The translations under genes and the position numbers were made by a program. Below are positions 1 to 60,954 of a stretch of DNA of 60,954 nt, piece by piece; positions within the stretch are counted from its first letter, which is position 1; the number at the start of each line of letters is the position of its first letter. Location of the stretch: IMG/VR virus record IMGVR_UViG_3300017776_000012, positions 1 through 60,954 of that record; one strand, written 5' to 3'. This DNA is from a virus. The notes under the pieces are model-generated. The model was not told where the DNA came from. It saw only the letters and a list, made by a program, of their open reading frames with translations, and did no database searches.

Positions 1-123
1 AGTTTTTTTAGTATAAAGGTACTGACGAATATCTGCAGTGCCTTCAAACTGATGTCCTCCAGAAGCATTGCTTCTAACAACAGCTGGAGCCTCGGCAGAT
101 CGGTCTATTTTACTTTTTAATAC
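1..123. repeat. Left copy of the 123-bp terminal overlap
   Basis: Bases 1-123 are identical to 60832-60954. The repeat lies inside the giant gene and keeps its frame when the ends are joined. This fits a circular assembly overlap better than a physical terminal repeat, since T7-type phages carry theirs in a non-coding gap between late and early genes. Confidence 0.95.
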
Positions 124-12868: not shown

Positions 12869-13180
12869 TCACTGTTGGTTTCTTAAGTTCTGTAATAAAA
12901 ACATGTTATTCATGTTTGCAATTTCTTGAGGCTTCTGACCTCTATCTAATAACAGATTATAATCCCGCTCATTTAATTGACCGCGACTAGAGTCTTGTTT
13001 GACATTAACATTAGCAGGAGCTGGATGCCTTTTGATTGTAGGCCTAGATCCTTCTTCTGCAATGAGCTCTACTAGTTCATCTTGCGAGTTCACTTGCATA
13101 GGCTCAATGGTAATTTTTTTACCGTCTAATGGATTTAACCATGTATTTGCGCGTGGTGTTGGTAATAAAAAAGTTCTCAT
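12869..13180 (-). CDS. Small protein of the internal virion cluster, unknown function
   Basis: This 103-aa frame starts at an ATG overlapping the stop of the gp15-like gene (ATGA) and ends 10 bases before the giant gene's ATG, so the three genes are translationally linked. The protein is soluble in appearance, rich in N, Q and P, with no membrane segment and no recognised domain. Its position between two predicted ejected proteins suggests a virion component or a partner for one of them, but nothing in the sequence proves it. Confidence 0.8.
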   Translation of the reverse strand: MRTFLLPTPRANTWLNPLDGKKITIEPMQVNSQDELVELIAEEGSRPTIKRHPAPANVNVKQDSSRGQLNERDYNLLLDRGQKPQEIANMNNMFLLQNLRNQQ

Positions 13181-16100: not shown

Positions 16101-17424
16101 TACTTTGAAAAATATCAGCATCTTCGTTTTTATCTAAACCTGCAGCTATAAATTCATTATAGGTAGGAGAAATAGATTCTAAAGCTTTGTCGCCATAATC
16201 TTCAGTAAAGGTTGTAATGTCTTCAGGCACGAATGTAGTCAAGGCATTAAATCTATTTACGCGATCTATGCGATTAACTTCGGCTTCTTCTAAAGTAGCC
16301 CCTTCATTTGAAGGAATTCCTGTTAAATAAGGTTTATCTAATTCACCTTGTACAAGAGAGGCAAACCTTTGAGCCCAAGAAATAGATTCCCCCCTAGAGT
16401 TTATTGAGGGAGTTTCAGCTAATAAGGCAGCAGCTTCAGAACTAATATCTCTACCAGCATCAATAGCTCCCTGTAACGATAATGTCTTAGACTGCAATCG
16501 CCTGCTGTTTACTTCAGCCCGATCTGCTTCCCGGATTATTTTTTGTGCATTTTGTACAATAGGAACTAAAGCTTCATCTAAAGTACTGTTTAAAGCATCA
16601 AGAGTAAACTGATCTAAAGCTCCTTCTTGTTCTAATTGTTCTAATTCAGGCTGTACTAATGCTGTATAAAAACTATTTCCAATAGCAAGAAAATCATAAT
16701 TACCGTCTTTATCTGGAACAACATTAGTATCTGCAAAAAGGCTTCTTAAGCCTTCTGTATACGCAGGAGTACCCGGAGCCGCACCAATTTTGTCTTGAAT
16801 GCCTTGAGTAACTGCAATAGAAAGCTGCGACTGGGCAGCAGTTAAAGCTCTTTTTTGATTGTTTGCATTAATAGTATCGATTATAGGTCTTGCTTGAGGC
16901 TCTAATTGTTCCCAGACTTGTCCGCCTTCCCACGCATTCTCTAAACTTTTATACTGCTCCATAATCCCATCTTCATCGAAGGGATTGTTTTTAACATAAT
17001 CTTTAAACTCACTAAATCTAGTTTCAGCAATAGCGTCAACATTTAAGCCAGTAGCATTGGCATGCCTCTTAGAAAACTCTTTATGAGCACTGGTTCTATT
17101 AGGGATAACACCTCTACTTGCGACATCTTGATACCGATTAAGGTTCCGTGAAGCTACATCTTCTGTGGTATATCCGTCAATGATGTCTTGGTTCTTTTTA
17201 GTTTCAAGTTCATCTAATACAGAATAACCTTTATTTTCAATAGCCTTACTGAACACATCAAAGGTTCTTTGAAAGTTTTTATCAAAGGCATAGAAGTGGT
17301 CTAAGGCAGATACCTTAGGAGCAACTTGAAGAACAGGAACAGTCTCAACGCCTTGAAACGGAGTTACAGCCGTAGGAACCTTTGCTGGCGTAAATTTATT
17401 ATCTTGTCCAAAAATTATGCTCAT
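13177..17424 (-). CDS. Internal virion protein B-like (T7 gp15 position), 1,415 aa
   Basis: A long frame with a good ribosome site (AAGGAATTTAAAA before the ATG) follows the gp14-like gene by 2 nt. In T7, gp14, gp15 and gp16 are encoded consecutively, form the internal core, and are ejected to build a channel across the envelope. This gene holds the middle position and its product is large, mostly helical, acidic and repeat-poor, as expected of gp15. At 1,415 residues it is nearly twice T7 gp15 (747). No enzymatic motif was recognised. The assignment rests on gene order and general character, not on a specific motif. Confidence 0.75.
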   Translation of the reverse strand: MSIIFGQDNKFTPAKVPTAVTPFQGVETVPVLQVAPKVSALDHFYAFDKNFQRTFDVFSKAIENKGYSVLDELETKKNQDIIDGYTTEDVASRNLNRYQDVASRGVIPNRTSAHKEFSKRHANATGLNVDAIAETRFSEFKDYVKNNPFDEDGIMEQYKSLENAWEGGQVWEQLEPQARPIIDTINANNQKRALTAAQSQLSIAVTQGIQDKIGAAPGTPAYTEGLRSLFADTNVVPDKDGNYDFLAIGNSFYTALVQPELEQLEQEGALDQFTLDALNSTLDEALVPIVQNAQKIIREADRAEVNSRRLQSKTLSLQGAIDAGRDISSEAAALLAETPSINSRGESISWAQRFASLVQGELDKPYLTGIPSNEGATLEEAEVNRIDRVNRFNALTTFVPEDITTFTEDYGDKALESISPTYNEFIAAGLDKNEDADIFQSILGDINAEYVEFRQGVVDEVKKKLAAPVLTTVESLLNASEGKFRGNPEALQGYFLENIAPLLTNYFPEEMDTVNGLFASDSNGSFLYRQYSVKDALGEKVDVGVNLWQSTSNPNERQPVVHDWQIGESEGEYFVYPGISNRDGSKVDLNEIQIGDDPSKIEGIFKFDSYEAAKKTWDNLVDREMALVTEARANTLQTEPNRRGTVLAIRAEMPLLNPLEQSIVKVLTSHDESLLRGMSGSSTAEPGDMAKLLNQNLDTKETDVTPVGVAKDSGRPSIAVLRGFNNRFVAPGGDLSPQWFDDVQTEFAGVLRMDPQLFKVLKEEYNTTVNGINQTEGLSESDKITKIAETKGEIITHLRGHIAAAAYVYELENARLASESTGLQNGVNILMDTDAQSSALRDILASFASNENKDITFNKDGSTLQDNAVFTTNEARVFINSALVQLNRQLGNEEEIYSFFGEYEQMVRNTFSITEEAVAVRSGADASITIEQDNRNHIEGSTFLNGQVAGNTSLAAQVDVTAKLILAAPGTLESNIMSLSQDIDNYNNPFMQASMAFLQNPSTLQEGGVAKARTYLGMIDSKGSDAAQLRRQFTKTFEGTDKSMFSGLVKHFEDKGINRRVITELTNVNSEVNQEYQRELQRQIRINVGRNKDELAGLQADQNVDGETRLYYQILQDSHIAALSTTFNEENGTFIVINQENKTPLIIKRDSASDAGTLRHAHRTMQALDAQYADPKANLTGNQRRGVGDSRYGRRLVQANIGAIADAISQNKVRRTTTVLEHGLSLVFPEAEIRQERALRIEMFLKDNLDETLAKELDILDEFKIYKRKRADPEFFSPKEIDQALVEMARGLSVKNMYFMLDRTTAGVSGTPSLRYSLWKNPDNYSFDVNQSEQNVTTFSITTTSVNEGIQDTFPFYFPKTLQGEFIPVSQWGIESINKGNVDFSSPARKKSATLGSSYTQADLDRLNRSLEEEE

Positions 17425-17426: not shown

Positions 17427-18467
17427 TTAAATTCCTTGTCCGCCAATTGGCGCACTGTATGAAGTACCTGTAGGTGAGTTATATGTATAATAGCCTGAAG
17501 GTATTCCTCCGCCTGTAACTACTGAGTCACCCCCCGGTAAAGTTACTGTATTTGTTGCGGGGGATCCCCCAAAACCTTGTCCCCCTGCATTGACGTATGC
17601 TCCAACACCGCCCGCAATACTACCTGCAACGCCCATTAACATCTGAGAATTTGCAGCACTCTTAGCCGCTTGATAGCCTGTTGCGATATTCTGAGTTTCA
17701 GCTTTCTTTGCAATCTCAGCATTGCTTCTAATAAGATCTGCCATTGTTCTAATGTTTGCAGCTTCTGCATCAGCAGAGGCTCTTAAAGAGGCTGAGCTAT
17801 CATATAGGGTAGGCTTTCTACCGGGGACAAATAATGATTTTGAAGACTTTCTTGCTTTAACTTTAATGCTGCGTCTAGCATTTCTTTCAGCTGATCTCAG
17901 TTGAAGCCTTGCAGTAGTATCGTTATTTATAATCTCTTTATCTAAACTATTATAGGCTGCAGCTTTGTACCTCATGACTGAAGAAGAGTAAGGATTAAGA
18001 TTTCTTTTATTAGCAGTATTAGAGAAAGCGTTTAGAGATTTACTAAACTGTTGGTTTGCTGTAGTGTTGGCTTTTTCTTGTTGCATTAAAATGCCCATCT
18101 GCTGATCAGCAAGCTCGTCAGCTAGACCTAAAGGAATGCTTACTCCTCCGCCAGCTCCTGAAGAACTTTGAAAATTCTTCTGCATGACTGCCAGTTGTTC
18201 TCTGTGACTAGCATACTTATAGTTAGCCATAGCAACTTTATTGTTCATATTCTCTTGAGCAATAGCAGCATTAGTCTGTGCAAAGATTCCTTGAATCTGC
18301 ATAGCTTCTTCAGTATCTGCTTTTTGCATAGTCATTTGATAGTTAGCTGCAGCAGCCCGTCTTCTATTTTCTGCCTCTGCTTTTGCTGCTTTTTTAGCGG
18401 CACTGCTTCCAAAAATGCTAGAAGCAATACCTGCTCCTGCTACAATACTTGCTGCTACAATTGGCAT
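17427..18467 (-). CDS. Internal virion protein A-like (T7 gp14 position), 346 aa
   Basis: The protein begins with a hydrophobic Gly/Ala segment (residues 3-22, VAASIVAGAGIASSIFGSSA), followed by an Ala/Lys/Gln-rich helical body (about 25-115) and a Gly/Ser/Thr-rich C-terminal tail. This is the usual look of T7 gp14-type proteins, which insert in the outer membrane at the start of ejection. The start is supported by AGGAG upstream. The gene sits between the terminase region and the gp15-like gene, the normal place among T7 relatives with rearranged terminase genes. T7 gp14 is shorter (196 aa). Confidence 0.75.
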   Translation of the reverse strand: MPIVAASIVAGAGIASSIFGSSAAKKAAKAEAENRRRAAAANYQMTMQKADTEEAMQIQGIFAQTNAAIAQENMNNKVAMANYKYASHREQLAVMQKNFQSSSGAGGGVSIPLGLADELADQQMGILMQQEKANTTANQQFSKSLNAFSNTANKRNLNPYSSSVMRYKAAAYNSLDKEIINNDTTARLQLRSAERNARRSIKVKARKSSKSLFVPGRKPTLYDSSASLRASADAEAANIRTMADLIRSNAEIAKKAETQNIATGYQAAKSAANSQMLMGVAGSIAGGVGAYVNAGGQGFGGSPATNTVTLPGGDSVVTGGGIPSGYYTYNSPTGTSYSAPIGGQGI

Positions 18468-18468: not shown

Positions 18469-18915
18469 TTAGTCTCCTAAATATGATATAATATCTTTAA
18501 TCTTATTGTCAAGCTCCTCTGTGTAACAAAAGAAATGAGGTAGCTTCATAAGCTTCTTCTTCTGCTCCAAAAAATGCTCTATAATGTCTAAATGAGTCTG
18601 CTGATTAAATCGAATCTTTTCATTTACAGTCTCCATGCTCTTTAACTGAGCTGCTTTATCTTCACGTTCAAGTATGACAAGTCGTTGTATTTTCTTCCTA
18701 AAAGGCCAAGGATCCCAGAGTTTAACGACAACATCCCTATAGTCTAGGGGCCTTATCTCCTCATCCCACGGCATTTCATAGAAGCCGTTAGGGTTGTCTT
18801 TCTTATCCACATACCAGGGGAAAGACTCACCTACTACAGGCAACCCGCTCAAATGAGCTTCGTGCATTGTAAAAGATGTACCTACTCTAGGGCCAATACC
18901 TGTCACAACTTTCAT
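18469..18915 (-). CDS. Sulfotransferase-like P-loop protein, 148 aa
   Basis: The N-terminus reads MKVVTGIGPRVGTSF, a P-loop variant like the GxGRSGTS loop of phage proteins related to sulfotransferases, which bind the 5'-phosphate of PAPS. A following GLPVVGE and a later NPNGFYE also fit that family. The rest is a charged helical tail. I take the ATG at 18915, which overlaps the terminase stop as TAATG with GGGAG in front; a GTG two codons upstream is possible. The protein is short for a catalytic sulfotransferase, so activity is doubtful. It lies between TerL and the internal virion genes and could be a virion or packaging accessory. Confidence 0.6.
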   Translation of the reverse strand: MKVVTGIGPRVGTSFTMHEAHLSGLPVVGESFPWYVDKKDNPNGFYEMPWDEEIRPLDYRDVVVKLWDPWPFRKKIQRLVILEREDKAAQLKSMETVNEKIRFNQQTHLDIIEHFLEQKKKLMKLPHFFCYTEELDNKIKDIISYLGD

Positions 18916-20666
18916 TACCACTCCCGTTTATTTGATCTCGTTTTAATTTTATCCCAACCAATGAGACGAAGAGGAGCCCTATTGTCTTTCTTAAGCACCT
19001 TAACAGCACCAGAAAGACCTCTAGAGATCATGGCGGACCTACGCCCATCATTCTCCCACCTGTCATACTCATCTTGTTTGTTCTTATGTTCCTGAGCAAC
19101 AATCATCTTATCTACATCAACGCCAAGCATGTCGGTATAGTAGCTTACAGAATGAGCTAAGGCATCAATCCGGTCATCTCGCTTCAATGCTCCTCGCCGT
19201 CTAGAGATGCGAGTTAATTGGATCTGATTCTCTTGATCGCTCAGAACCCTAGGGTCCATGACAAGTCGCCCATTGGCAATTACTGGTTCAATGGTATCTA
19301 AGATTCTCTGCTCTTTATGACCATGAACCCTAAACCCGTCGATGCCTACATGACTGCAATACTTAGCGATAATAGGATGTAGGATGGTTCCAAACATACC
19401 ATCACCAAAGTTCTCTTCATACCGAATAAGCTTGACCTTATATTGCATAGCCAGTTCGGCGATCTTGACAAGAACAGTCTCATCATATCCGCCATCTAGC
19501 CCTAACATCTCATGAATACATATGTATCCAGTAGGGGTAGCTGAGGCAACAATAACACCTGTCTCATCATGACCCCTACCTGAGGGGTCTACATGGATAG
19601 TAGTAATAGTATAATCTTCAAATGCCTCAGACTTGTACATAGGGTGATAAACTTTATCCCCAGACATCCCAACACTATTGATACTCTTATGAGGATTGGA
19701 ACGGGCATGCTGAACTTTCTGGTGGAAGGAATCTAAGCCTACATCCGTACAGATAATATCCTTCAATTTAAGAGGATACTTCTCTTCATCTGAGAGAGAG
19801 GTGTCAAGCAGGAACTGGAGCGCATAATTTGCCGGTCCAATCTTAGCCAGCCTCTCATCTAAAGTTTCTCTATCGAACCTCTCAGGCTGCGTAGGATCGC
19901 CCGGACTAGCTTCGAGCTCTACCATACGTTCTGTGATCCACGGGCTGATGTGCTCCATCCTAGTGGGTATAGTGGGGTCAGGAAACTCTGCCGGGAACTT
20001 AATGAAGGGATATCCTGAGGCTGCCAGCTTATTGTAGTTAGAATCACGGGTATGGGGAGTACCTAGGAAGATAACCCTACCGCCCTTATTACGGATAGAT
20101 TCAAATTCATGGATCCGACCTAACAGCTTGTCCCTCATCTCCTGAGTATCGCAGTTGCCCCGAACCTCAAGGTCATCGCCCACGATATAGTCAGCGTGCC
20201 GACCAATGATCTGGGAGGTAATACCTGCAGCACTTACCGACTTGTCCTGAGATACCTTAACTCGACATGCCGTATTAAAGGCCATAGCGTTATCGGTATC
20301 ATCATCCCCCGGAAGGAGATGGTTCATGAAGGGGACCGCAGTCAGAATGCTTCTCGTCATAGAGATAAAATCAATAGCCTTCTGAGCTGTAGCAGAAGTG
20401 ACCAAGATGGTTGCATTAGGGTCACGTAAGAGCCACCACGAAGCAAGCATAGATGTGATAACACTCTTACCTGTACCACGACCTGCAGCCAGAACCATAT
20501 CATTATCGTGGTTCTGAAGGGAATCCATAATGCCATACTGAATAGGGGTTGGTTCCCCAAATCCCATGTATTTCATTACGTAATAGCCGTAGTTCCTAAA
20601 GTCCTGTATAGCCTCATCAGGCACATTAGATGGGATCATTCTCTCATCTAGTTTATTGTTAATCAT
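18915..20666 (-). CDS. terL: Terminase large subunit (packaging ATPase/nuclease), 583 aa
   Basis: TerL pumps DNA into the prohead and cuts concatemers. The ATPase half has Walker A GRGTGKS at residues 62-68, an LVTSATAQKA segment after it, and an acidic DYIVGDDLE stretch near 160. The nuclease half shows TTIHVDPSGRGHDETGV, a typical first metal-binding aspartate region, and ends with RDDRIDALAHSV. Length is close to T7 gp19 (586). The ATG overlaps the small-subunit stop as ATGA. Base composition is more GC-rich than the flanking internal-protein genes. Confidence 0.95.
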   Translation of the reverse strand: MINNKLDERMIPSNVPDEAIQDFRNYGYYVMKYMGFGEPTPIQYGIMDSLQNHDNDMVLAAGRGTGKSVITSMLASWWLLRDPNATILVTSATAQKAIDFISMTRSILTAVPFMNHLLPGDDDTDNAMAFNTACRVKVSQDKSVSAAGITSQIIGRHADYIVGDDLEVRGNCDTQEMRDKLLGRIHEFESIRNKGGRVIFLGTPHTRDSNYNKLAASGYPFIKFPAEFPDPTIPTRMEHISPWITERMVELEASPGDPTQPERFDRETLDERLAKIGPANYALQFLLDTSLSDEEKYPLKLKDIICTDVGLDSFHQKVQHARSNPHKSINSVGMSGDKVYHPMYKSEAFEDYTITTIHVDPSGRGHDETGVIVASATPTGYICIHEMLGLDGGYDETVLVKIAELAMQYKVKLIRYEENFGDGMFGTILHPIIAKYCSHVGIDGFRVHGHKEQRILDTIEPVIANGRLVMDPRVLSDQENQIQLTRISRRRGALKRDDRIDALAHSVSYYTDMLGVDVDKMIVAQEHKNKQDEYDRWENDGRRSAMISRGLSGAVKVLKKDNRAPLRLIGWDKIKTRSNKREW

Positions 20667-26899: not shown

Positions 26900-27073
26900 T
26901 TTAATTTTCCTTTTTAGGTTTAAATAATTAGCTAGAGCAAAAATAGATAAACCCAGAGCTGATTGTTCTCGTTAGAGAGTCAGCTTTACCCGGGGGAGTT
27001 GTTATATCGTAACATCTTGAATACTAATCACTAGTTTCTAGTCTTGTTATAACTCATCCGAGTCGGCGGTCGC
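26900..27073 (-). promoter_or_regulatory. Intergenic leader of the capsid gene with candidate phage promoter
   Basis: This 174-bp gap between scaffold and capsid genes is one of the few non-coding gaps in the structural block. It holds the palindromic 12-mer ACTAGAAACTAG on the minus strand (27031-27042), also found in two other intergenic gaps (48231-48242 and 52893-52904). T7 places its strongest promoter, phi10, in the same position. A GGCGGTAATTGAGCGACCGCC inverted repeat lies at the scaffold end (27061-27081 region), and a long AT-rich leader leads to the capsid ribosome site. Confidence 0.55.
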
Positions 27074-28051: not shown

Positions 28052-29650
28052 TTACATCATTTGCTGAACAGCTTCATTGACTTGTTGAGCTGCTGCAGGT
28101 TGACCTTGTTGTTGCATTTGTGTTGCACTGTTCTGAGCATGAGCAGTAGTCATGGCATTAACGGCTTGCATCTTGGCTTGATCGGCCATTGCTGCCTCTT
28201 TCTCTTCCTCAAGCTCATCAGGACTCTTGACCCAATTTCTAGGATCAAAGCCAAGGCTTGTGATAAGAGCTCTTGCATACTCATCAAACTTAAAGTTTTG
28301 AATAGCTTCTGGTGGGAGGTTGCGAATCATCTCGCCCATAGCCATCAGACGCTCTCTGTCAGACTCTCTACTAAGAGCCTGCAGACCAGTAACAATATCA
28401 ACAGACAGAACACCTGAGTCTTCATCTTGGAATTCGGACACTAAGCGTTCATCAACTTCTTTATTATCTACCATTAAGTAGAATGTTCTTTTTACGATTG
28501 GAACCAATAAGTCTCTAGCAATAGACGAGAACACCCCACCTAAGACTTGCTCTAACTCTTGTCCAATCATACGCACTGCGGTAGCCGTCACTCTGTCACC
28601 AGATGGGATAGCACTACCAGACATGAGGAAGCTTTGAGCCACCTCTTTACGCATGGTTTCCACAGCTTGCATACTTAAAGATACTTGAGGGTTCATGGTA
28701 CTAGAAGGAGTAATAGCAAAGACGTCTTGCTGTCTTGCTGAAACCCAAGTACCATTAGGCTGGGTAGAAATATCATCAAGGGCAGTAATGCCTGATGGAT
28801 CTACAGCCATCCAGAATGCGGAGCTAGCCGAGAGGCCTTCAATAAGGGCTGCAGTGTAAGACTCTAAGGATTTGATATCACCAATATTCATCTCAACATG
28901 GGATCTACCGTAGTTCTCATTGGTAACTGACTGCCATCGCAGTGCAATAACCGGGAGAACCTTATAGATTCCTTCTGAAATAATTTCCTTATTCTTCTCT
29001 ACACTGACTTCCCAATGCTTTGCCTCGTCATTCCATACCAATCTATTAAAGATAGTATCATAACCTTTCTTAGTGACTGATGCTTGATACACCACTCCAG
29101 GGCTGTGAGCGTCTTCCATAGCACCTGTAGTGCTGGATTTAGCTGCATGCTCTAGATAGATAATCTCAATTACTTCACCTCTATGGTTACGTTTAATGAC
29201 GTAATGATCTAACCTTACAGTTCTAAAGATCATGTCATCCTCAAGAATCATTAAGGCATCACCAAGGACCAACAGTTGTTGGAGAGCTTGGTAGATGGAT
29301 TCTCTAAGATTCTTACTATTTAACTTCTTATGTAATTTAGAAGCCATTGACTCAAGGTATTCCTGAGTTTCCAGAGGAGGGTACTCACCAGTCTTAGGAA
29401 AGAACCTAAAGAATGGCAAATCATTGAGAGGCAAAAGCGCACTCATGATTCTAGAGGCTAGAGCATTGACTCCTCTAGCGGGAATGCTAGAGTATGGAGT
29501 AACCAGTTGCTCAGTCTCAGAGTAGCCAATAGGTGGTAACAACTCAGGCAATGTTAATGCAGAACAACCCCTCGCTCTGTCTAGCTTTGCTGTGCGAAGA
29601 GAATCGAATGCAAAGAAGCGATCCTCGATAGATTTTTCTGCCATTTCCAT
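28052..29650 (-). CDS. Portal / head-tail connector (T7 gp8-like), 532 aa
   Basis: The protein matches T7 gp8 in length (536) and pattern: RARGCSALTLPELLPP (25-40), a TPYSSIPARGVNALASRIMSALLP stretch in 51-74, LLVLGDALMI (about 127), and a late VDIVTGLQALSRESDRERL segment. The ATG has GAGGTACTATAA in front. The C-terminal 60 residues are Ala/Gln-rich. It forms the dodecameric vertex ring through which DNA enters and leaves. Confidence 0.93.
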   Translation of the reverse strand: MEMAEKSIEDRFFAFDSLRTAKLDRARGCSALTLPELLPPIGYSETEQLVTPYSSIPARGVNALASRIMSALLPLNDLPFFRFFPKTGEYPPLETQEYLESMASKLHKKLNSKNLRESIYQALQQLLVLGDALMILEDDMIFRTVRLDHYVIKRNHRGEVIEIIYLEHAAKSSTTGAMEDAHSPGVVYQASVTKKGYDTIFNRLVWNDEAKHWEVSVEKNKEIISEGIYKVLPVIALRWQSVTNENYGRSHVEMNIGDIKSLESYTAALIEGLSASSAFWMAVDPSGITALDDISTQPNGTWVSARQQDVFAITPSSTMNPQVSLSMQAVETMRKEVAQSFLMSGSAIPSGDRVTATAVRMIGQELEQVLGGVFSSIARDLLVPIVKRTFYLMVDNKEVDERLVSEFQDEDSGVLSVDIVTGLQALSRESDRERLMAMGEMIRNLPPEAIQNFKFDEYARALITSLGFDPRNWVKSPDELEEEKEAAMADQAKMQAVNAMTTAHAQNSATQMQQQGQPAAAQQVNEAVQQMM

Positions 29651-42342: not shown

Positions 42343-44826
42343 TCACGAAAAAAAGTATTCTGATGTTAACACATCATGAATATCTAAAGAACTCTTAGAA
42401 GGCGGATGAATTGTACAAGATTCCCAGTCATGTGTACCTGTTTTCTTTGCAGTAGTTTCTGCCAGTACAATAGCTGGGTTGTAATTATCATACATCTCTA
42501 CAAACGATTCCCTAATGTGCTTGTGCATCTTAGGTACATCGTTCGCATGACATCCAAATGAGTCATGAATCATAGAGAAAGAATCAATACCATCATTATA
42601 CATTCTATTAATGGTATCAAGCATATGGCTTGCATCAAGCGAATGAATAAAATTAGGGGCAATACCTGAAGTCATTTCAGATGTGCTTAACTTCGCGTCT
42701 TTCTCTGCAGGAATGGAAAAGACAACCAACTGAGCATCAACACGCAATCGAACCTTACGGTCTTCATAGTAATTGTGTTTAATGGTATTCCCAATTGGAG
42801 TCTCCCACTCTAGATAGTCATCAACCTTGTTTACCTGCTTAGCCAACTCCTTAGCCCATGCCATAAACTGGTAAGAGGCTGAGACTACTGAGGGAATAGC
42901 CTCGTTCATAAGAACAGTACCAATGTACTTAGCTGCCAATCCCTTCTTCTCCCCAGCCCAATCACAATGACCGTCTTCCTTTAAAGCTCTTACGCAACCA
43001 TGCAACGTTACACCATAGGCGTAAGTCATGCAAGGTCGCTTGGCGCACTTCCTGCTTACTCTTTCTTCTCTCCACGCTGAATGCCACTCGTCTTCTACCT
43101 TTGTAGATAGATACTTATTAGCAGCATCTGCAACCTCTGTATAGAGGTCACATGGTTCAGAAACAGGAATTAAATTTGTAGCTCTAGCTCCAACAGGATC
43201 TCTACCGATAGCTGACCAATGCTGGATACCATTACACGATCCATCCATTTGTACAGCAACGTAGTTCAATCCAGATTCATTATAATAATCTAACAATGAA
43301 GCTAACAATTGCCACTTCTTACGATCATCTCCTTGCTTTGCCCAGAATGTATTGTCAATGGGGTCTGCAGCAGAGGCTTTAAGATAGGCCTCGTTCTTGT
43401 TAAACCATTGTACACGCTCATCAAAAGAGAGTTTATCCTCGCCACACAAGTTAGCGATCTGGACCTTCATCCAGTATCGACCTTCTTGGGTGTAGGGCTT
43501 ACCCTCGGCAAAGCAACATAAAGCCTTGTCAAAGTCGGAGCCTTGAGGGCTAAGCATTTCTGTAGCAGTATAACATCTACCTCTAAAATCTACAGTGATT
43601 GGAAGATAGAATTGTTTAAAGTTAGCAAGATCCTTAGCCAAATCAAGGCGTTGAATCATACGTAACCTATCTGCCCAGAGCTTTGCCCACTCCTTGTGAG
43701 CGTTCTCTAACTGAGACAGGTGTTGAGCAAACTCTACAGTATACTTACCGTCTTCGTCTTTTGGTTCACCTTCGTAGTCTTGGAAAACAAAGTTGTCCTG
43801 AGAGTATCTAGGACAATCTGCTAGTTCTAAGTTACTGGTAAACACATGCTTCATGACTTCTAAGACATCAGCATTTACTTTATACTTGGTATTCTGCAAA
43901 GAGTTGATAGCCCGTACACTGGCATGAGACATTTGAGATAGACCAAATGAGTCATACCCCGGAGATGCAGGTCTGACGAACTTCATCTGCATGCCTGGAA
44001 CAATGTAGCCCCCCTCCCATCGACCATTCTTTTTGGTCCAAGGGTTAGGAGTGCAAATCATTGGAGCCCATTTGGGTCTTAACCATTGTCTGAATTTATG
44101 ATTATCTACCATATCAGAAACAATGTTAGGATTGACCTCAATGTATGAGGTTCGCTTCCTGCCGTCCCAATGCAAGATACGTTGAGCAAAGTAATTGCCC
44201 TCTCGTATGTCTTCATCTTTGACAGCATTGACGATACATTGCAACAAGGCTACACCAAACTGAAGCTTAACCTTCTTGGGCATAAAAGCCATAGTTGAAA
44301 CTTCTTTGATAAACCTATTGCGTTTCTTAGCAGTCCAGTTTTTAATAATTTTAGATCTATATCCCCAAATCTCTTTATGCTCGTCTCTTGCCTTGATGTA
44401 GTGCAAAAGCTGCCATGTCTGCTCAGCAATGTTTTGGGCTACAGTCTGTAGCTTAATACGATTACCTAACACAGAGACACCATGATCTCGTTTAGGGTAA
44501 GCAGAAGGGATGAGGCACTTAAAGGTGATAAGTGCTAAGTGTTCAGGGGTTAAGAATAAGGCTGGTACTTGCCAGCTAGTAAACTGTCGCATGCCTTCTA
44601 AGATGCTTACTTGCATCTCTTTAAAGGCTGGAATAAAGTAAGGACCATAATAATGAATGATCTCTTCTTCGGTAGTACGAAGCACTGAAGGGTCTTGAGA
44701 GATAGCTAATTCAGCTTCAGAAGCCGTAGACTCAAGGCCAGTAGTGCCCCAATACCTACGTAAGCCAGCTAATAGCATGTCTTCTTCTCTAGCTATTTCT
44801 AGTCCAATTAAGTATGTGTTATCCAA
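42343..44826 (-). CDS. T7-type single-subunit RNA polymerase (larger of two), 827 aa
   Basis: The catalytic set is complete: DFRGR (413-417), catalytic D528 in QMDGSCNGIQH, R592/K596/Y604 in SRKCAKRPCMTYAYG with T7 spacing, and D755 in MIHDSFG. The N-terminal domain (1-400) is present. The frame opens with TTG at 44826 (AGGAATCATAA upstream); the first ATG is 16 codons in, so the start is uncertain. The tRNA genes lie just upstream and the replication genes just downstream, so this enzyme is the likely transcriber of replication and late genes. Confidence 0.95.
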   Translation of the reverse strand: MDNTYLIGLEIAREEDMLLAGLRRYWGTTGLESTASEAELAISQDPSVLRTTEEEIIHYYGPYFIPAFKEMQVSILEGMRQFTSWQVPALFLTPEHLALITFKCLIPSAYPKRDHGVSVLGNRIKLQTVAQNIAEQTWQLLHYIKARDEHKEIWGYRSKIIKNWTAKKRNRFIKEVSTMAFMPKKVKLQFGVALLQCIVNAVKDEDIREGNYFAQRILHWDGRKRTSYIEVNPNIVSDMVDNHKFRQWLRPKWAPMICTPNPWTKKNGRWEGGYIVPGMQMKFVRPASPGYDSFGLSQMSHASVRAINSLQNTKYKVNADVLEVMKHVFTSNLELADCPRYSQDNFVFQDYEGEPKDEDGKYTVEFAQHLSQLENAHKEWAKLWADRLRMIQRLDLAKDLANFKQFYLPITVDFRGRCYTATEMLSPQGSDFDKALCCFAEGKPYTQEGRYWMKVQIANLCGEDKLSFDERVQWFNKNEAYLKASAADPIDNTFWAKQGDDRKKWQLLASLLDYYNESGLNYVAVQMDGSCNGIQHWSAIGRDPVGARATNLIPVSEPCDLYTEVADAANKYLSTKVEDEWHSAWREERVSRKCAKRPCMTYAYGVTLHGCVRALKEDGHCDWAGEKKGLAAKYIGTVLMNEAIPSVVSASYQFMAWAKELAKQVNKVDDYLEWETPIGNTIKHNYYEDRKVRLRVDAQLVVFSIPAEKDAKLSTSEMTSGIAPNFIHSLDASHMLDTINRMYNDGIDSFSMIHDSFGCHANDVPKMHKHIRESFVEMYDNYNPAIVLAETTAKKTGTHDWESCTIHPPSKSSLDIHDVLTSEYFFS

Positions 44827-48205: not shown

Positions 48206-48230
48206 TAGTTTTACTTTCATTCTGGAAAAG

Positions 48231-48254
48231 CTAGTCTCTAGTGATAGTGACTAG
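48231..48254 (-). promoter_or_regulatory. Candidate phage promoter: ACTAG-rich palindrome with GTGATAGTG
   Basis: The minus strand reads CTAGTCACTATCACTAGAGACTAG. It contains ACTAGAGACTAG (48231-48242), one base different from the 12-mer at 27031 and 52893, and CACTATCAC (48241-48249), shared with two other gaps. It lies between a terminator and the first gene of a run leading to the larger RNA polymerase. Confidence 0.5.
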
Positions 48255-48286
48255 AAAAATGTAGATATACATTATCTCTACATATG

Positions 48287-48331
48287 AAAAAAAAAATGGG
48301 CTATCCTAGGATAATTCCTAGGACAGCCCAT
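48287..48331 (-). terminator. Strong rho-independent terminator
   Basis: A 15-base stem (ATGGGCTGTCCTAGG with CCTAGGATAGCCCAT, one G-U pair) and a 6-base loop are followed by ten Us on the minus strand. It ends the transcript of the small RNA polymerase block. Confidence 0.92.
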
Positions 48332-48347
48332 ATACGAAGTTAAATTA

Positions 48348-48533
48348 TTAGTTTACGATATTTGAGATAAACTCATTATCGTTTGCATTCTGTTCTTTGG
48401 CTTCAATAGCATCGAGACGATCTTGAGCCATCTTACGCTTTTCTTCACTAGTATTGATCATAGCGACAATATTAGTCAAGATCACTTTACCTTCAGAACC
48501 TTCCAAATGATTATAGTTTTTAGGTTGTGCCAT
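48348..48533 (-). CDS. Small protein after the small RNA polymerase, 61 aa
   Basis: Start at 48533 with AAAGGAAAG upstream. MAQPKNYNHLEGSEGKVILT is followed by a helical, acidic half. It is flanked by hairpins on both sides, giving it its own RNA segment. Function unknown. Confidence 0.75.
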   Translation of the reverse strand: MAQPKNYNHLEGSEGKVILTNIVAMINTSEEKRKMAQDRLDAIEAKEQNANDNEFISNIVN

Positions 48534-48556
48534 TTTCTTTCCTTTATAGTTTATGA

Positions 48557-48598
48557 CAAACAAATAAACAAACAAACAAAACGATCGGGACACCGATC
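48557..48598 (-). terminator. Hairpin and T-rich tail after the small RNA polymerase
   Basis: Minus strand GATCGG-TGTC-CCGATC (48583-48598) is followed by a TTTTGTTTGTTTG repeat (the AAAC-type simple repeat on the plus strand, 48557-48582). It probably acts as a partial terminator or processing site between the polymerase and the 61-aa gene. Confidence 0.6.
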
Positions 48599-48632
48599 TG
48601 TCGAGCGAAGCGAGTGGGGACAAGGTGTAATG

Positions 48633-50558
48633 TTAGGATATAAGAGATATTGACATATCATTAATATCCCATGAACCTTTATTCGGTATCGATTTAGTTG
48701 GAAGTCCATCAAGTTCATTGAATGATAATTCCATATGAGTATCAATCATGCCTTGACGTACAATTTCTTTGATTTTAATACAATCTATAATTCTTGTACC
48801 CCATGAATCATGAATAGGAGATACAGGAATATTTTCTTTAAACGCTAAACTACATGAATATAACATTACTGCTGCATCAATAGAGTGAATTCTGTTAGGA
48901 CTTTGGCCTGCGGTACTTGCTACATTTTGCAAGACTTCAGAGATGCCTCTACTTTTGCTGTATGGTACAGTAAAGTTAATATCTTTTTCTAGTGTTACTG
49001 CTTTTTGATTGAAACAGAACATACCAATAGGTGATTTCCATTGAACACTTCTGTTATGAAGATTAAATGTCTTTTGAGACACTTGTTTCATGAAATTAAT
49101 AAATTCAGTAATAGATGGGAATAACAATTGAAGAGATCTAGAATAAGCATTTGCTAGACAAAGTAAAAGATGTCCGGGTTTAACTCCAGCTTCTCTTGCT
49201 GCTTTAACAGTTTTAGGAAATGGGATTTCATTCTTATTAATGACTTGACCCCATGTTAACTTGTCAAGTACATCAATTTCTTTCTGATCTTCTTCTAGCG
49301 TATACTTTACGTCTGCGTCATTTAGCCAGCCTCTTGCAATACCCATGATTGATGAACCATAAGCAATGATCATAACTGGTTTCTTTGCAGATTTACGAGA
49401 AGACAATTCATCATAAACTTCTTTGTTTTCAAGTAATGAAGATACATCGTACTCTTTGCCATATTCTTTGTATGTAAAGAAACGATTGTTTTCTACTGCA
49501 TGAGACGCAGTAACGCTGTACAGATCTTCATTTTTATCAATCTTAGTTCTAAGTGCCGTATGGTATGCAAGTCTAGCATCTTTCATAATACAGGCCATGT
49601 GACCCATACCTGAGCATGTAGCATCTTGTTGCATGATGTATGAAGTTTCACCATACTGCAAGCACTCGTACAATGCCAGTGCTGCCCTGTAACGACACCA
49701 TACTTTATCTTTAGATTTGTATATTTTCTTTTCAATGCCGTAATACGGATCATTTAGGATATGTGCATAGTTATCTACATTGATATTATACTCATCTTGT
49801 AAATGTTGTAAGAAGAGTTTGAAGTATGCACAACTTATATCAACTGCATAATTCTCAGCATAGTCACACAAGGCTCTGTGTATATCGCCATTCTGATATG
49901 ACAACAATGAGCCTGAATCTGTGTAAATGCGACCACGCCAGTCTAAGAAACACGGAAGATAATACTCATGTTCTTGTTCTTTTTTGGCATATTCAATACA
50001 ATAACTCTCAATGTGTTGATCATCTGAAAGAACAATATGTCTTTTCATAGCTTGAAGTACATGTTGATTTATTTTGTAAGGTACTTCTTGAATAGTATTA
50101 ATAGCATCTACTTGTTTCTGAGAAGCCCATGTCATAGGTCTACCACTAATTAAATAGTCTGAACTAGTGTTTGTAATTTCTAGTTTTCTTGGTTTATTTT
50201 TCAACGGTCTAATAGGTTCTAGAGCATTATCTCGATGATCATGATCAAAGAATACCTTGTTTGTTTTACCGTTAACTAGAATGATTCCATTTTCTTGCCA
50301 TGTTCCAATGAGTTTCCATAATTGGATTTGAACATGAGCACAATCATTTGGATTCTCTAGTGCTGCAATAGTAGGTGCATGCTTTCTAATCCATTCGTAT
50401 GCTTTTAGATTAAACTTATCAAAACCTCTCATTTCTCGCCAAAAGTCTACGGATAGAGGTGTTACCCACTCATCCATATAAGATGGCATATATTTAATAG
50501 ATTTAGCAGAGTCAATTAGCTTATCTAAGGTTTTGTTCAACTTTATTCCTTTTTGCAA
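48633..50558 (-). CDS. Second, compact T7-type single-subunit RNA polymerase, 641 aa
   Basis: All catalytic motifs of the family are present: DWRGR at 206-210, D312 in QQDATCSGMGH, R388/K392/Y400 in RKSAKKPVMIIAYG with the exact 4 and 8 spacing of T7 R627/K631/Y639, and D584 in PIHDSWGT. It lacks about 200 N-terminal residues compared with the 827-aa enzyme, that is most of the domain which in T7 binds promoter and nascent RNA, so promoter recognition must differ or need a partner. The sequence is very different from the larger enzyme, so it is not a recent duplicate. It lies in the early block, between a hairpin and coupled small genes. I infer an early or middle transcription role. Confidence 0.93.
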   Translation of the reverse strand: MQKGIKLNKTLDKLIDSAKSIKYMPSYMDEWVTPLSVDFWREMRGFDKFNLKAYEWIRKHAPTIAALENPNDCAHVQIQLWKLIGTWQENGIILVNGKTNKVFFDHDHRDNALEPIRPLKNKPRKLEITNTSSDYLISGRPMTWASQKQVDAINTIQEVPYKINQHVLQAMKRHIVLSDDQHIESYCIEYAKKEQEHEYYLPCFLDWRGRIYTDSGSLLSYQNGDIHRALCDYAENYAVDISCAYFKLFLQHLQDEYNINVDNYAHILNDPYYGIEKKIYKSKDKVWCRYRAALALYECLQYGETSYIMQQDATCSGMGHMACIMKDARLAYHTALRTKIDKNEDLYSVTASHAVENNRFFTYKEYGKEYDVSSLLENKEVYDELSSRKSAKKPVMIIAYGSSIMGIARGWLNDADVKYTLEEDQKEIDVLDKLTWGQVINKNEIPFPKTVKAAREAGVKPGHLLLCLANAYSRSLQLLFPSITEFINFMKQVSQKTFNLHNRSVQWKSPIGMFCFNQKAVTLEKDINFTVPYSKSRGISEVLQNVASTAGQSPNRIHSIDAAVMLYSCSLAFKENIPVSPIHDSWGTRIIDCIKIKEIVRQGMIDTHMELSFNELDGLPTKSIPNKGSWDINDMSISLIS

Positions 50559-50808
50559 TAGCTTGATCAGCTTCTTTCAAAGCGTCATGGAATTTAAGAG
50601 TCTTTTTTATCTGATCAGCAATAACTTTTAAGTCTTTACCTTGACAGATAAAATCCCAAGTATCATAATTGTGATTCAATGCATCTTTGTTTGCTTTTTC
50701 AATAGCTCCTTCAGGATTTTCAGGGAAGTGACCTAGATATTGGAACCCTGTTTCACATTGATACACGTAATACAGGTGATCGTACTTCTTTTTAATATTT
50801 TCAATCAT
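50521..50808 (-). CDS. Small protein overlapping the small RNA polymerase start, 95 aa
   Basis: Starts at the ATG at 50808, six bases after GGAG; other ATGs lie close by. Aromatic first half (YDHLYYVYQCETGFQYLG) and helical charged end. It overlaps the polymerase start by 38 bp, so the two are made together and might interact; that is inference. Confidence 0.7.
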   Translation of the reverse strand: MIENIKKKYDHLYYVYQCETGFQYLGHFPENPEGAIEKANKDALNHNYDTWDFICQGKDLKVIADQIKKTLKFHDALKEADQAIAKRNKVEQNLR

Positions 50809-51037: not shown

Positions 51038-51056
51038 ATTACCTCCTAACAGTCCA

Positions 51057-52413: not shown

Positions 52414-52457
52414 AATTTAAATCTCCTACCTAGGTTTCCTAGGTTATAAAGGTATAT

Positions 52458-52506: not shown

Positions 52507-52508
52507 AA

Positions 52509-52892: not shown

Positions 52893-52904
52893 CTAGTTTC
52901 TAGT
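52893..52904 (-). promoter_or_regulatory. Candidate phage promoter, ACTAGAAACTAG
   Basis: The minus strand has ACTAGAAACTAG 25 bases before the ATG of the 119-aa gene, identical to the 12-mer before the capsid gene. A GC-rich hairpin stands immediately upstream, a usual order of terminator then promoter. Confidence 0.5.
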
Positions 52905-52917
52905 GGCAATACAACGT

Positions 52918-52954
52918 GAAAGCCCCGGACACGTGATAGTGTGCCCGGGGCTTC
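52918..52954 (-). terminator. GC-rich hairpin, probable terminator or processing site
   Basis: Arms of about 13 bases (GGAAGCCCCGGGCAC / GTGTCCGGGGCTTTC, with one bulge) enclose a loop holding ACTATCAC. The following tail has only TTTC, so termination is uncertain, but the stem is the most stable in the early region. Confidence 0.6.
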
Positions 52955-52963
52955 CGTCGTTAG

Positions 52964-58737: not shown

Positions 58738-60954
58738 TTAGTTACTCCTAAATTTATCTACGTTTTGTTGCATACGATCAATTATCTGTTGCCGCATTTC
58801 ATTGGCTTTTGCTCGATTGTGCTTTCTAACTTGCTCTCGATCTAAGAACATCATATTTCTTTGATTATCATATTTCATCTGTTCTCGCAACGTACGCGGT
58901 TTAGTACGATCTCGGTAGATTCTTGAAAACATTGAAGAAAGAATTGGAAGAGTTTCATAGAAAGAGTCAGTAGTCGATCGGCTATACGGTGAGTCACCGC
59001 CTATAGCGGTTTCACCTAAGAAATCAACACCAGTTCCAATGAGGTTAAAGGTTTTATCAAAGACTCCTTCAGCTGGGCTTCCAAAAGGATCAAAAGGAAT
59101 TAAGTCATTTGTGTAATAAGGCTGCTTACGCCCCAAAACATCTTCATTAATAAAACGACTTTTTTGAGCTTGCTGTGCTAGATATCCTAAAACTGCCGTT
59201 CCATACTTACCCCCAAATATAGGCATTCGCATCGCTTTTTTAGCTGCAAAGAAACCGTAATCATTCTTAGCCTCGTGTATAACTTGCTCTGAGCTCTTAC
59301 CTCTAGCCATTTCCATAAGTGTTGTATAAACGGTATCCCAAACTAGGTGACTGAAATAGATTCCCGCTAATCTACCGATGCCTTTACTAGCCAGTCTTGA
59401 TGCCCCTATGAAAGTTTTTTGCTCATAGAAAGCTCTGACCCAAGACATGTAAATGTTTTGGAATGCATTGAATCCGGTATTGTTTAATAGCGGTCTATCA
59501 AAAATACGGGGTTCCACATTAAAAGCATCTACACGCATCACAACAAAGGTGTTCATAGCATTTCTAAATCTGTCCTGTAACGCCGCATCTTTCCGTAAGA
59601 CGCTAGCTTGAGCCTGTAAAGACCTAGAGTCGCTAGCATCCATAGTATGTCCGATTCTAGCCTTTCTGTTTAATTCAGTAGCTCTTTGGCCTTTAAGTCT
59701 AGCTTCTTTAAATGTTCTAGCATAATCAATATATCTAGTTTCTACTGCGTTAGAGTTTTTTATGGTAGCTTCTAAGATAGGTAATAATTCTCTATCCAAT
59801 AAACCGGATTTTTGTAATTCTAAGGCTGTTGAATAGTCAATACCAGCTTTAGTAGTAGCCTGTTTAAATCTCTTCTGAGCTGCTTTTCTATTAGCCCTAT
59901 CTGAAGACATAATGTTATCCATATTAGACTCAGGTAAACCAGTTGTTGACAATGAGTCCTTAATGCTTTCTAACTCTGTAATAAGCTTTTCCAAACGACC
60001 ATCGATGACATACCCAATAATCTTATCATGAGCTTGTAATCCTACTAATTCTTTATTCGCATTAATCATCATTTGAGAAGGTTTTCCGATTAAACCTACA
60101 GCAGCTTTAGCTCCTTTTGCTAAAGAACTTCTATCTCTGCCGCCTAGCTCATGCTCACGGGTGTCAACTTCTAAGTTAATATTAGTCCTACTTATAGCTT
60201 CTGCTCTTAAAGTTTGTAGAACAATTGAAGTTTGTTTTAAGGCTCTTGACCTGTCAATAGGTCGCAATCCTTGAGTAAGACCTTTAGCTATCAGGCTAAA
60301 TGCTGCTACAGGATGTGTGACCATCTTGCGCATTAGGGGAAGAGTACTTTGGCCTGTTTCTTCTAACAAAGCTCCGGGTAAGTTAGCACCATAATAAATA
60401 AATGTCAGAGGATTTAATACAGACAAAGCGGTATCATATGCTGCATCAGATTTATCAAAAGATGAGCGATAGCCTAAAATATTTTCTCTAGCTCTATTAA
60501 AGTATTCTAAACTTTTTCTCAAAGATTCTTTTGTTTCAGGCTCCATAGGAACTTGATCAGTAAAATCACTTAATGCTTTAGTAAGTGTTCTTGTGTTTAA
60601 ATTCTTCACACCTACTTTATTACCTTTATCTCCTATTTCAATACTCTTACCTATTGCAGCAGTAAAGTTTAAGGAATCTGCAGCATCTGCCCCAATACCT
60701 CTTGCCATACCTGAGGATAAAATAACAGGATTATAATCAAGCATTGCTGATAAAGTTTCATCTTCAAAGATATCATTAATTTCAAAATAATCTAAATCTC
60801 CCGGATCAAAACGAACTGAGTTTTTAGCTACAGTTTTTTTAGTATAAAGGTACTGACGAATATCTGCAGTGCCTTCAAACTGATGTCCTCCAGAAGCATT
60901 GCTTCTAACAACAGCTGGAGCCTCGGCAGATCGGTCTATTTTACTTTTTAATAC
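58738..60954 (-). CDS. Giant ejected internal virion protein, C-terminal part; joined to 1-12858
   Basis: Continuation of the giant gene; unique sequence is 58738-60831 (698 codons including stop), since 60832-60954 repeats the left end. The frame passes through without a stop (TVAKNSVRFDPGDLDYF, then SAMLDYNPVILSSG), and joins the left part in register. It holds hydrophobic helices (LNPLTFIYYGANLPGALLEE, GRLAGIYFSHLVWDTVYTTL) and basic helices, and it reminds me of the LPD38-type C-terminal region of large polyvalent phage proteins, a link I cannot test here. It could anchor the protein in, or cross, a membrane during DNA entry. Confidence 0.9.
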   Translation of the reverse strand, partial: VLKSKIDRSAEAPAVVRSNASGGHQFEGTADIRQYLYTKKTVAKNSVRFDPGDLDYFEINDIFEDETLSAMLDYNPVILSSGMARGIGADAADSLNFTAAIGKSIEIGDKGNKVGVKNLNTRTLTKALSDFTDQVPMEPETKESLRKSLEYFNRARENILGYRSSFDKSDAAYDTALSVLNPLTFIYYGANLPGALLEETGQSTLPLMRKMVTHPVAAFSLIAKGLTQGLRPIDRSRALKQTSIVLQTLRAEAISRTNINLEVDTREHELGGRDRSSLAKGAKAAVGLIGKPSQMMINANKELVGLQAHDKIIGYVIDGRLEKLITELESIKDSLSTTGLPESNMDNIMSSDRANRKAAQKRFKQATTKAGIDYSTALELQKSGLLDRELLPILEATIKNSNAVETRYIDYARTFKEARLKGQRATELNRKARIGHTMDASDSRSLQAQASVLRKDAALQDRFRNAMNTFVVMRVDAFNVEPRIFDRPLLNNTGFNAFQNIYMSWVRAFYEQKTFIGASRLASKGIGRLAGIYFSHLVWDTVYTTLMEMARGKSSEQVIHEAKNDYGFFAAKKAMRMPIFGGKYGTAVLGYLAQQAQKSRFINEDVLGRKQPYYTNDLIPFDPFGSPAEGVFDKTFNLIGTGVDFLGETAIGGDSPYSRSTTDSFYETLPILSSMFSRIYRDRTKPRTLREQMKYDNQRNMMFLDREQVRKHNRAKANEMRQQIIDRMQQNVDKFRSN
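60832..60954. repeat. Right copy of the 123-bp terminal overlap
   Basis: Identical to bases 1-123. Removing one copy gives a circle of 60,831 bp in which the giant gene is intact. Confidence 0.95.

What the first reader, a model, noticed from the sequence alone, without database searches (positions are those of the whole stretch)
48633..50558. Second complete single-subunit RNA polymerase in the same T7-like phage
The 641-aa protein keeps every catalytic residue of the T7 family with exact spacing (D312; R388/K392/Y400; D584), yet lacks most of the N-terminal domain and is very different from the 827-aa enzyme at 42343-44826. T7-type phages normally have one such enzyme. N4 phages have two short subunits plus a virion polymerase, but those are not arranged like this. 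A two-step cascade with two promoter classes is a natural hypothesis.
Basis: partly seen in the sequence, partly recalled or inferred. Interest (0 to 1): 0.85.

Follow-up and report, generated by a model that had tools for sequence, protein, structure and literature searches.

The report
Phage with three T7-type RNA polymerases
This short-tailed phage makes two ordinary T7-type RNA polymerases, which a few known phages also do, and also carries what looks like a third inside its giant injected protein, where the polymerase's conserved blocks come in a shuffled order not found described for this enzyme family in the papers searched.

Summary
The second polymerase is real. It lies on the minus strand (50540-48633, 635 aa from a conserved TTG start), keeps all T7-family catalytic motifs, is under purifying selection (dN/dS about 0.11) and has an 89% identical, equally intact ortholog. 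It lacks most of the N-terminal domain and half the thumb, as N4 RNAPII does. By itself it is not unprecedented: Tawavirus and Foturvirus phages also carry a short early and a long T7-type polymerase. Its phylogenetic placement is unresolved. Its operon lies between two strong terminators, upstream of the 827-aa enzyme, which suits a relay; no step of that relay was shown.

The bigger finding lies outside the given coordinates. The giant ORF (4983 aa across the circular junction, no cysteines, T7/N4 ejection-protein position, HExxH motif downstream, as in N4 vRNAP) contains a third single-subunit RNAP core. Its modules run motif C, then A-fingers-B, then thumb-DxxGR: the reverse of T7 and N4. 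Profile-profile hits to all three modules beat 100 shuffles, recur in two other assemblies, and N4 vRNAP scores collinear. I propose ejected polymerase, then the short enzyme, then the full enzyme. Permuted order about 80% likely; catalysis and cascade inferred.

The parts
48633..50540 (-). Short T7-family RNA polymerase ('small RNAP'), 635 aa, TTG start (open frame runs to 50558)
   Evidence: Pfam RNA_pol 1.4e-29; all catalytic motifs; start and Shine-Dalgarno conserved in G001 ortholog; dN/dS 0.11
42343..44826 (-). Full-length T7-like RNA polymerase, 827 aa ('large RNAP')
   Evidence: phrog_414 6e-173; RPOL_N and RNA_pol domains; relatives (88-100% identical over the matched part) in 8 other contigs
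1..12858 (-). Giant virion-type protein, first 4286 of 4983 residues; continues across the circular junction at 60831-58738
   Evidence: one uninterrupted 4983-aa frame in the circularised record; 0 Cys; 73.9% identical 5011-aa homolog in G001
58738..60831 (-). Giant virion-type protein, C-terminal part
   Evidence: 123-bp identical ends 1-123 / 60832-60954
7891..7938 (-). RNAP motif C in the giant (THYSFIHDDLKALPGQ, aa 1641-1656, Asp 1648), N-terminal of motif A
   Evidence: aligns to T7 791-821; IHDD invariant in 3 homologs
7573..7620 (-). RNAP motif A in the giant (SRLIAQADGSTNGSKH, Asp 1754)
   Evidence: aligns to T7 536 onward; DG..NG..H invariant
7231..7287 (-). RNAP motif B in the giant (GRSFAKKPLMIVPYNAKRK; R1859, K1863, Y1871)
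   Evidence: score 11.1 against 2.4 maximum in 200 shuffles; same R/K/Y spacing as T7
6403..6564 (-). Thumb-end plus DxxGR block in the giant (DWRTR at aa 2148-2152), C-terminal of motif B
   Evidence: aligns to T7 322-445; G011 homolog reads DWRTRMYVSSAILNPKG
13177..17424 (-). 1415-aa cysteine-free protein directly upstream of the giant, probable second ejection protein
   Evidence: T7 gp15 / N4 gp51-like position; no family match
17427..18467 (-). 346-aa cysteine-free protein, possible further ejection protein
   Evidence: Position and composition only; phrog_20153 (unknown function) 1.9e-6
52918..52955 (-). Strong intrinsic terminator, 5' border of the operon that carries the small RNAP
   Evidence: 15 pairs, 10 GC; a hairpin in the same place in G001
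48296..48331 (-). Strong intrinsic terminator, 3' border of the small-RNAP operon
   Evidence: 16 pairs, then a run of T; the same stem in G001
52893..52903 (-). Candidate phage promoter CCACTAGAAACTAGC just after the terminator, upstream of the small-RNAP operon
   Evidence: 3 exact CTAGARACTAG sites, 0.16 expected; counterpart in G001
48231..48241 (-). Candidate phage promoter CACTATCACTAGAGACTAGC after the terminator, upstream of the genes leading to the large RNAP
   Evidence: conserved in G001 at the same place
27031..27041 (-). Third candidate promoter ACTAGAAACTAGT, in the gap upstream of the major capsid gene
   Evidence: conserved in L014, L020, L113
25571..26899 (-). Major capsid protein (context: T7-like morphogenesis)
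   Evidence: phrog_267 3e-27
18915..20666 (-). Terminase large subunit, T7 type
   Evidence: phrog_38 4e-86, Terminase-T7_RNaseH-like 2.6e-27
28052..29650 (-). Portal / head-tail adaptor, T7 type
   Evidence: phrog_449 5.5e-104

Best explanation
The 635-aa protein is an active, minimal single-subunit DNA-dependent RNA polymerase. It is made early in the cell from an operon bounded by two terminators, and it works as the intermediate polymerase of a three-polymerase programme. Step 1: the giant cysteine-free virion protein, ejected with the DNA, carries an ssRNAP core with rearranged module order and starts early transcription, as N4 vRNAP does. Step 2: the small RNAP, which lacks the AT-rich recognition loop and most of the N-terminal domain, transcribes past the terminator into the region of the large RNAP, perhaps with a cofactor as N4 RNAPII needs. 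Step 3: the 827-aa T7-like enzyme transcribes replication and late genes. Shown: three ssRNAP-related sequences, intact catalytic residues, purifying selection, terminators, virion-type composition of the giant only, rearranged motif order. Inferred: catalytic activity of each, ejection, promoter assignments, order of action.
For: Small RNAP. Large RNAP. The giant contains an ssRNAP core: phrog_414 1.6e-5 in the window, Pfam RNA_pol 7.4e-9 above gathering in homolog G011. Three module hits at E 4.7e-9, 7.4e-5 and 0.0028, against a best of 0.081 in 100 shuffles. The order is the same in the window alone and in independent assemblies G001 and G011. Catalytic residues of all motifs are invariant over homologs down to about 30% identity. 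dN/dS is 0.11 for both the small RNAP and the giant block. Virion type: 0 Cys in 4983 aa against about 51 expected; N4 vRNAP has 0 in 3500; small and large RNAP have 13 and 16. HExxH downstream of the core, as in N4 vRNAP C1. Operon borders. N4 precedent for vRNAP then minimal RNAPII: PMC4496689.
Against: No expression data, no cultured phage, no host known. Both AlphaFold models failed (pLDDT 36 and 39), so the rearranged core has no structural confirmation. In the window's own giant the motif C and DxxGR hits are weak (E 0.08 and 0.009, single sequence) and its motif B has YN in place of YG; the strongest signal is in homolog G011. PHROG's vRNAP profile does not match the giant. Only one promoter motif was found, with three sites, so distinct promoter classes are not supported. 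No N4 gp2-like cofactor was recognised.
Confidence: 0.5

Rival explanations
1. Two-step relay without a virion polymerase: host RNAP transcribes the early operon, the small RNAP then the large RNAP follow, and the giant is only an ejection/channel protein with a relic polymerase fold, as in the two-RNAP phages of the genera Tawavirus and Foturvirus.
For: Tawavirus and Foturvirus have the same short-early plus long RNAP set and their internal virion proteins show no RNAP signal. The window's giant motif B has YN instead of YG.
Against: All catalytic residues of the giant's core are invariant across distant homologs and its dN/dS is 0.11. Sigma-70-like sites in 42000-58800 are no more frequent than in shuffles (35 found, 43.4 expected), though one or two real promoters could hide there.
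Confidence: 0.28
2. The giant holds only the A-to-B part of an RNAP, and the C-like and DxxGR-like segments are chance or unrelated, so there is no rearranged polymerase.
For: AlphaFold gave no model; motif A segments alone did not beat shuffles; the third alignment has E of only 0.0028.
Against: Motif C and DxxGR profiles find their best place in the whole 4236-aa homolog G011 close to motif B (165 and 220 residues away), both above all 200 shuffles. Segment-only comparisons give E 1.8e-4 and 2.8e-6. The window alone repeats the order, and no competing C or DxxGR candidate was found in the normal places.
Confidence: 0.18
3. The small RNAP has a special duty other than a temporal class, for example priming replication, driving packaging, or acting as a selfish or exclusion gene acquired recently.
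For: Low GC (34% against 41-45% for core genes), very long branch, absent from the more distant relative G017.
Against: It sits in an operon bounded by terminators upstream of the large RNAP, conserved in G001; the two-RNAP phages have the short enzyme in the same early place.
Confidence: 0.12
4. The small RNAP is decaying or inactive.
For: Motif A reads DATCSGMGH instead of DGSCSGIQH; very long branch.
Against: Intact frame and catalytic residues in both known copies, dN/dS 0.11. N4 RNAPII, an active enzyme, also has DAT in motif A.
Confidence: 0.04

Closest known systems
Two-RNAP Autographiviridae (Tawavirus JSF7 / phiV141, K385-type Vibrio phages; Foturvirus H4/4)
   Same: T7-like structural genes; a short (673-708 aa) early RNAP without the AT-rich loop plus a full-length (796-802 aa) RNAP
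   Different: Their large RNAP sits just before the structural genes, after the DNA polymerase, while here it precedes the replication genes; their internal virion proteins (1412-1683 aa in the three Vibrio phages) give no RNAP signal; the small enzymes share only about 20-22% identity with this one and common ancestry is not shown
N4 RNAPII (gp15 + gp16), Schitoviridae
   Same: Minimal ssRNAP (673 aa together against 635): truncated N-terminal domain and thumb, early gene, accompanied by a giant virion polymerase
   Different: Split in two subunits in N4, one chain here; no recognised gp2 cofactor; not placed together by the tree (not rejected either, AU p 0.27)
N4 virion RNA polymerase (gp50, 3500 aa)
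   Same: Giant, cysteine-free, at the end of the ejection-protein genes, ssRNAP core followed by an HExxH motif
   Different: N4 order is collinear with T7 (DxxGR-A-B-C); here C-A-B-DxxGR. 4983 aa instead of 3500; set in a T7-type virion; no match to the PHROG vRNAP profile
Permuted RdRPs of birnaviruses and permutotetraviruses
   Same: Motif C precedes motifs A and B in the palm
   Different: RNA-dependent enzymes of RNA viruses, unrelated to the T7 family; no displaced DxxGR/thumb module
T7 RNA polymerase (gp1)
   Same: Family, motifs, catalytic residues
   Different: T7 has one enzyme; the small RNAP lacks about 220 N-terminal residues and the AT-rich recognition loop

Membership tests
T7-type single-subunit RNAP (small RNAP, 50540-48633) | DxxGR, motif A Asp, motif B R/K/Y, motif C Asp in order | tested here: met
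   DWRGR 200, D306, R382/K386/Y394, D578 (635-aa numbering)
T7-type single-subunit RNAP (small RNAP, 50540-48633) | Significant family profile match | tested here: met
   Pfam RNA_pol 103.7 bits against cutoff 22; hhalign E 6.5e-39
T7-type single-subunit RNAP (small RNAP, 50540-48633) | DNA-dependent RNA synthesis | not testable with these tools
   Needs purified protein
N4 RNAPII | Two subunits split between DxxGR and motif A | tested here: not met
   One uninterrupted chain in both copies
N4 RNAPII | Truncated N-terminal domain and thumb | tested here: met
   Thumb 38 residues against 57 in N4 RNAPII and 86 in T7; no residues at the AT-rich loop in either
N4 RNAPII | Common clade | tested here: inconclusive
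   AU p 0.27, very long branch
N4 RNAPII | ssDNA-binding recruiter (gp2) encoded nearby | tested here: inconclusive
   No match among early ORFs in PHROGs
Two-RNAP Autographiviridae (Tawavirus/Foturvirus) | Two complete ssRNAP genes, the short one early | tested here: met
   Searches compared; 'early' is judged from gene order, not expression
Two-RNAP Autographiviridae (Tawavirus/Foturvirus) | Short RNAPs form one clade | tested here: inconclusive
   AU p 0.17
N4 virion RNAP (giant ORF) | ssRNAP core with motif A, B, C and DxxGR residues | tested here: met
N4 virion RNAP (giant ORF) | Motif order DxxGR-A-B-C | tested here: not met
   Order C-A-B-DxxGR in window, G001, G011; N4 control collinear for the DxxGR-to-B part
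N4 virion RNAP (giant ORF) | Giant cysteine-free ejection protein with HExxH motif after the core | tested here: met
   profile similarity of the HExxH segment to N4 itself was not significant (E 0.12)
N4 virion RNAP (giant ORF) | Match to vRNAP family profile (phrog_2206) | tested here: not met
   No match at E 0.01
N4 virion RNAP (giant ORF) | Present in virions, ejected, recognises hairpin promoters | not testable with these tools
   Candidate CTAG-ARA-CTAG inverted repeats exist but are unassigned

The most novel reading that the evidence does not exclude
A lineage of T7-like phages encodes three single-subunit RNA polymerases, one of them an ejected giant whose polymerase core has been rearranged into C - A/fingers/B - thumb/DxxGR order: the first DNA-dependent RNA polymerase of the T7 family with a permuted active site, making the phage's transcription potentially independent of host RNA polymerase.
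Probability: 0.5. Interest if true: 0.92.

Novelty: new variant of a known kind. Interest (0 to 1): 0.75.

Why it matters
N4 is the textbook case of a virion-carried RNA polymerase followed by a minimal second one; T7 is the textbook case of one self-sufficient enzyme. This genome combines both plans, which bears on how the two evolved from each other. If the rearranged core is active, it would be a natural topological variant of the T7 polymerase fold, comparable to the permuted RNA-dependent polymerases of birnaviruses, and would show that the thumb/DxxGR and motif-C parts of the palm can be moved around the A-B core without losing catalysis. That is testable with one protein fragment. The small enzyme would be a single-chain analogue of the two-subunit N4 RNAPII.

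Tried and rejected
AlphaFold of the giant's core (3 sequences, pLDDT 36) and of the small RNAP (7 sequences, pLDDT 39): too poor to use; the Foldseek search with the second model returned T7 and mitochondrial RNAPs in all 50 listed matches, which is only consistent. More homologs of the small RNAP: one in viral contigs, none in genome contigs; more homologs of the giant core: none beyond G001, G011 and weak G017, none in phage isolates apart from ordinary RNAPs. Phylogeny: placement of the small RNAP unresolved; union with N4 RNAPII, with Tawa/Fotur short enzymes and with its own large enzyme all not rejected. G017's 653-aa ORF beside its RNAP was checked as a possible small RNAP; its sequence reads as a ribonucleotide reductase (my reading; the family scan errored). 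T7-like promoter CTATAGGGA: no more frequent than chance. General intergenic motif search returned mainly ribosome-binding sites. Candidate motif C at IHPTQHIDN...HQVK (giant aa 2436-2460) was considered and dropped: the Asp is missing and it is not conserved in G011. Pseudogene idea rejected by dN/dS.

Full report
WHAT WAS CHECKED. The frame at 48633-50558 is open on the minus strand only. Its product matches Pfam RNA_pol at 1.4e-29 and the PHROG RNA polymerase family at 1.7e-51. The true start is very probably the TTG at codon 7 (window 50540): a Shine-Dalgarno sequence precedes it, and the 89% identical ortholog in IMG/VR contig 3300030406_006306 (G001) opens its frame only there. The protein is thus 635 aa. 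The 827-aa enzyme at 44826-42343 (minus) is an ordinary full-length T7-like RNAP. The window is a complete circular record: its first and last 123 bases are identical. Structural and packaging genes are of T7 type.

THE SMALL RNAP. Against a profile of 28 other phage ssRNAPs it aligns over T7 residues 261-878 with E 6.5e-39. It has no residues at the T7 AT-rich recognition loop, and 38 thumb residues where T7 has 86. N4 RNAPII is reduced in the same two places, and a review describes N4 RNAPII as minimal, with truncated thumb and N-terminal domain, recruited by the ssDNA-binding protein gp2 (PMC4496689). dN/dS between the two known copies is 0.11, so it is not decaying. Its place in the ssRNAP tree is unresolved: the branch is 3.5 substitutions per site, and union with N4 RNAPII, with the short enzymes of Tawavirus/Foturvirus, or with its own large partner is not rejected (AU p 0.27, 0.17, 0.56). 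It was found in G001 but not in the more distant 62-kb relative G017, which has one T7-like RNAP besides its giant. Its GC (34%) is below that of core genes (41-45%).

PRECEDENT. Two ssRNAPs in a T7-like phage is not new. Vibrio phages phiV141, JSF7 and the K385 group, and Alteromonas phage vB_AspP-H4/4, each have a 673-708 aa early RNAP and a 796-802 aa RNAP. The H4/4 announcement lists 'two DNA-dependent RNA polymerases' without comment (PMC5658483). I found no paper in the library that studies such a pair.

POSITION. Genes run on the minus strand. The small RNAP is in a group of small genes between two strong intrinsic terminators, 52955-52918 and 48331-48296; both hairpins recur in G001. 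Downstream come further small genes, two tRNAs, the large RNAP, SSB, primase-helicase and DNA polymerase. The motif CTAGARACTAG occurs three times (0.16 expected, 0 of 100 shuffles reach 3): right after each of the two terminators and upstream of the capsid gene. The first two have counterparts in G001 and the third in L014, L020 and L113. It can be read as a T7-type promoter core (CACTA) or as a short hairpin; I cannot assign it to an enzyme.

THE THIRD POLYMERASE. The giant ORF from 12858 through the circular junction to 58738 encodes 4983 aa without a stop. It lies after terminase and a 1415-aa cysteine-free protein, where T7 and N4 keep ejection proteins. It matches phrog_414 (RNA polymerase) at 1.6e-5, and its homolog in G011 (4236 aa) passes the Pfam RNA_pol gathering cutoff (E 7.4e-9). 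Profile-profile comparison of the conserved block with 30 ssRNAPs gives three separate alignments: block residues 194-223 to T7 791-821 (motif C), 302-468 to T7 536-732 (motif A, fingers, motif B), 545-617 to T7 322-445 (thumb end and DxxGR), with E 0.0028, 4.7e-9 and 7.4e-5. The best E in 100 column-shuffled controls was 0.081. The three modules are therefore in the reverse of the T7 order. N4 vRNAP in the same test is collinear (229-706 to 204-691). Motif profiles scanned over the whole proteins independently pick the same places in the window, G001 and G011; for G011 the C and DxxGR scores (11.3 and 13.8) exceed 200 shuffles (maxima 2.6 and 6.5), while motif A by itself does not stand out. 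The window sequence alone repeats the order with weaker scores (1.5e-6, 0.0091, 0.078 for A-B, DxxGR and C). The catalytic residues are invariant in all three (IHDD, DG..NG..H, R...K.......Y, DWR.R). Large internal proteins of the two-RNAP phages and the rest of the giant give nothing (E at least 0.1; the H4/4 protein was translated out of frame in that run and is not a valid control).

VIRION CHARACTER. The giant has no cysteine in 4983 residues (about 51 expected from the phage's other proteins); N4 vRNAP has none in 3500; the small and large RNAPs have 13 and 16. Absence of cysteine has been used before as a mark of virion polymerases (PMC10747016). Downstream of the core all four giants have an HEI[GA]H motif, and N4 vRNAP has HELVH in its C1 domain, although that segment is not significantly similar to N4 by profile (E 0.12). 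So the giant is probably ejected, whereas the small and large enzymes are made in the cell.

INTERPRETATION. Best reading: the ejected giant, then the small RNAP, then the large RNAP. Shown: the three ssRNAP-related sequences, intact motifs, purifying selection, terminator-bounded operon, compositional split, rearranged order. Inferred: activity, ejection, promoters, timing. My estimates: small RNAP is an active polymerase 0.9; giant contains a true ssRNAP core 0.9; its order is rearranged 0.8; it is active and starts infection 0.5. I know of no permuted T7-family polymerase, and searches of the paper library for one found none; permutation of the palm motifs is known in RNA-dependent polymerases of birnaviruses and permutotetraviruses (PMC4666646).

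LIMITS. Both AlphaFold models were unusable. Only three homologs of the rearranged core are known to me, plus G017, where only motif B is clear. No host, expression or virion data exist for this record.

Noticed in passing
window 1-123 and 60832-60954: Identical 123-bp ends: a complete circular assembly of 60,831 bp; the giant gene is split by the arbitrary cut.
   Followed up: yes
giant protein aa 3583 (window about 2100): HEIAH zincin-like motif; HExxH is present in all four giants and in N4 vRNAP C1; a possible metalloprotease in an ejected protein.
   Followed up: partly
window 44884-45036: tRNA-Leu(taa) and tRNA-Arg(tct) directly upstream of the large RNAP gene.
   Followed up: no
window 52006-52413: Destabilase/SLT-type lysozyme gene near the head of the operon that ends with the small RNAP, an unusual place for a muramidase.
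   Followed up: no
window 54750-54941 and 53727-54046: Long non-coding gaps with several GC-rich hairpins; possible site of genome ends or further promoters.
   Followed up: no
window 56087-58379: Two adjacent proteins (378 and 381 aa) of similar length and LamG-like appearance that share a duplicated module (C-terminal in one, N-terminal in the other: ...GT[IF]A[NR]RGGW[IL]L...), possibly tail-associated.
   Followed up: no
G017 (IMG/VR 3300001419_000005), 62,311 bp, giant 1268-15289: More distant relative with one T7-like RNAP, a ribonucleotide-reductase-like ORF beside it and a 4674-aa cysteine-free giant with a clear motif B (KRPVMTRSYGAG) and an upstream IHDD.
   Followed up: partly
window 50521-50820: 99-aa ORF between the small RNAP and its upstream neighbour is absent in G001, an insertion or deletion next to the RNAP start.
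   Followed up: partly
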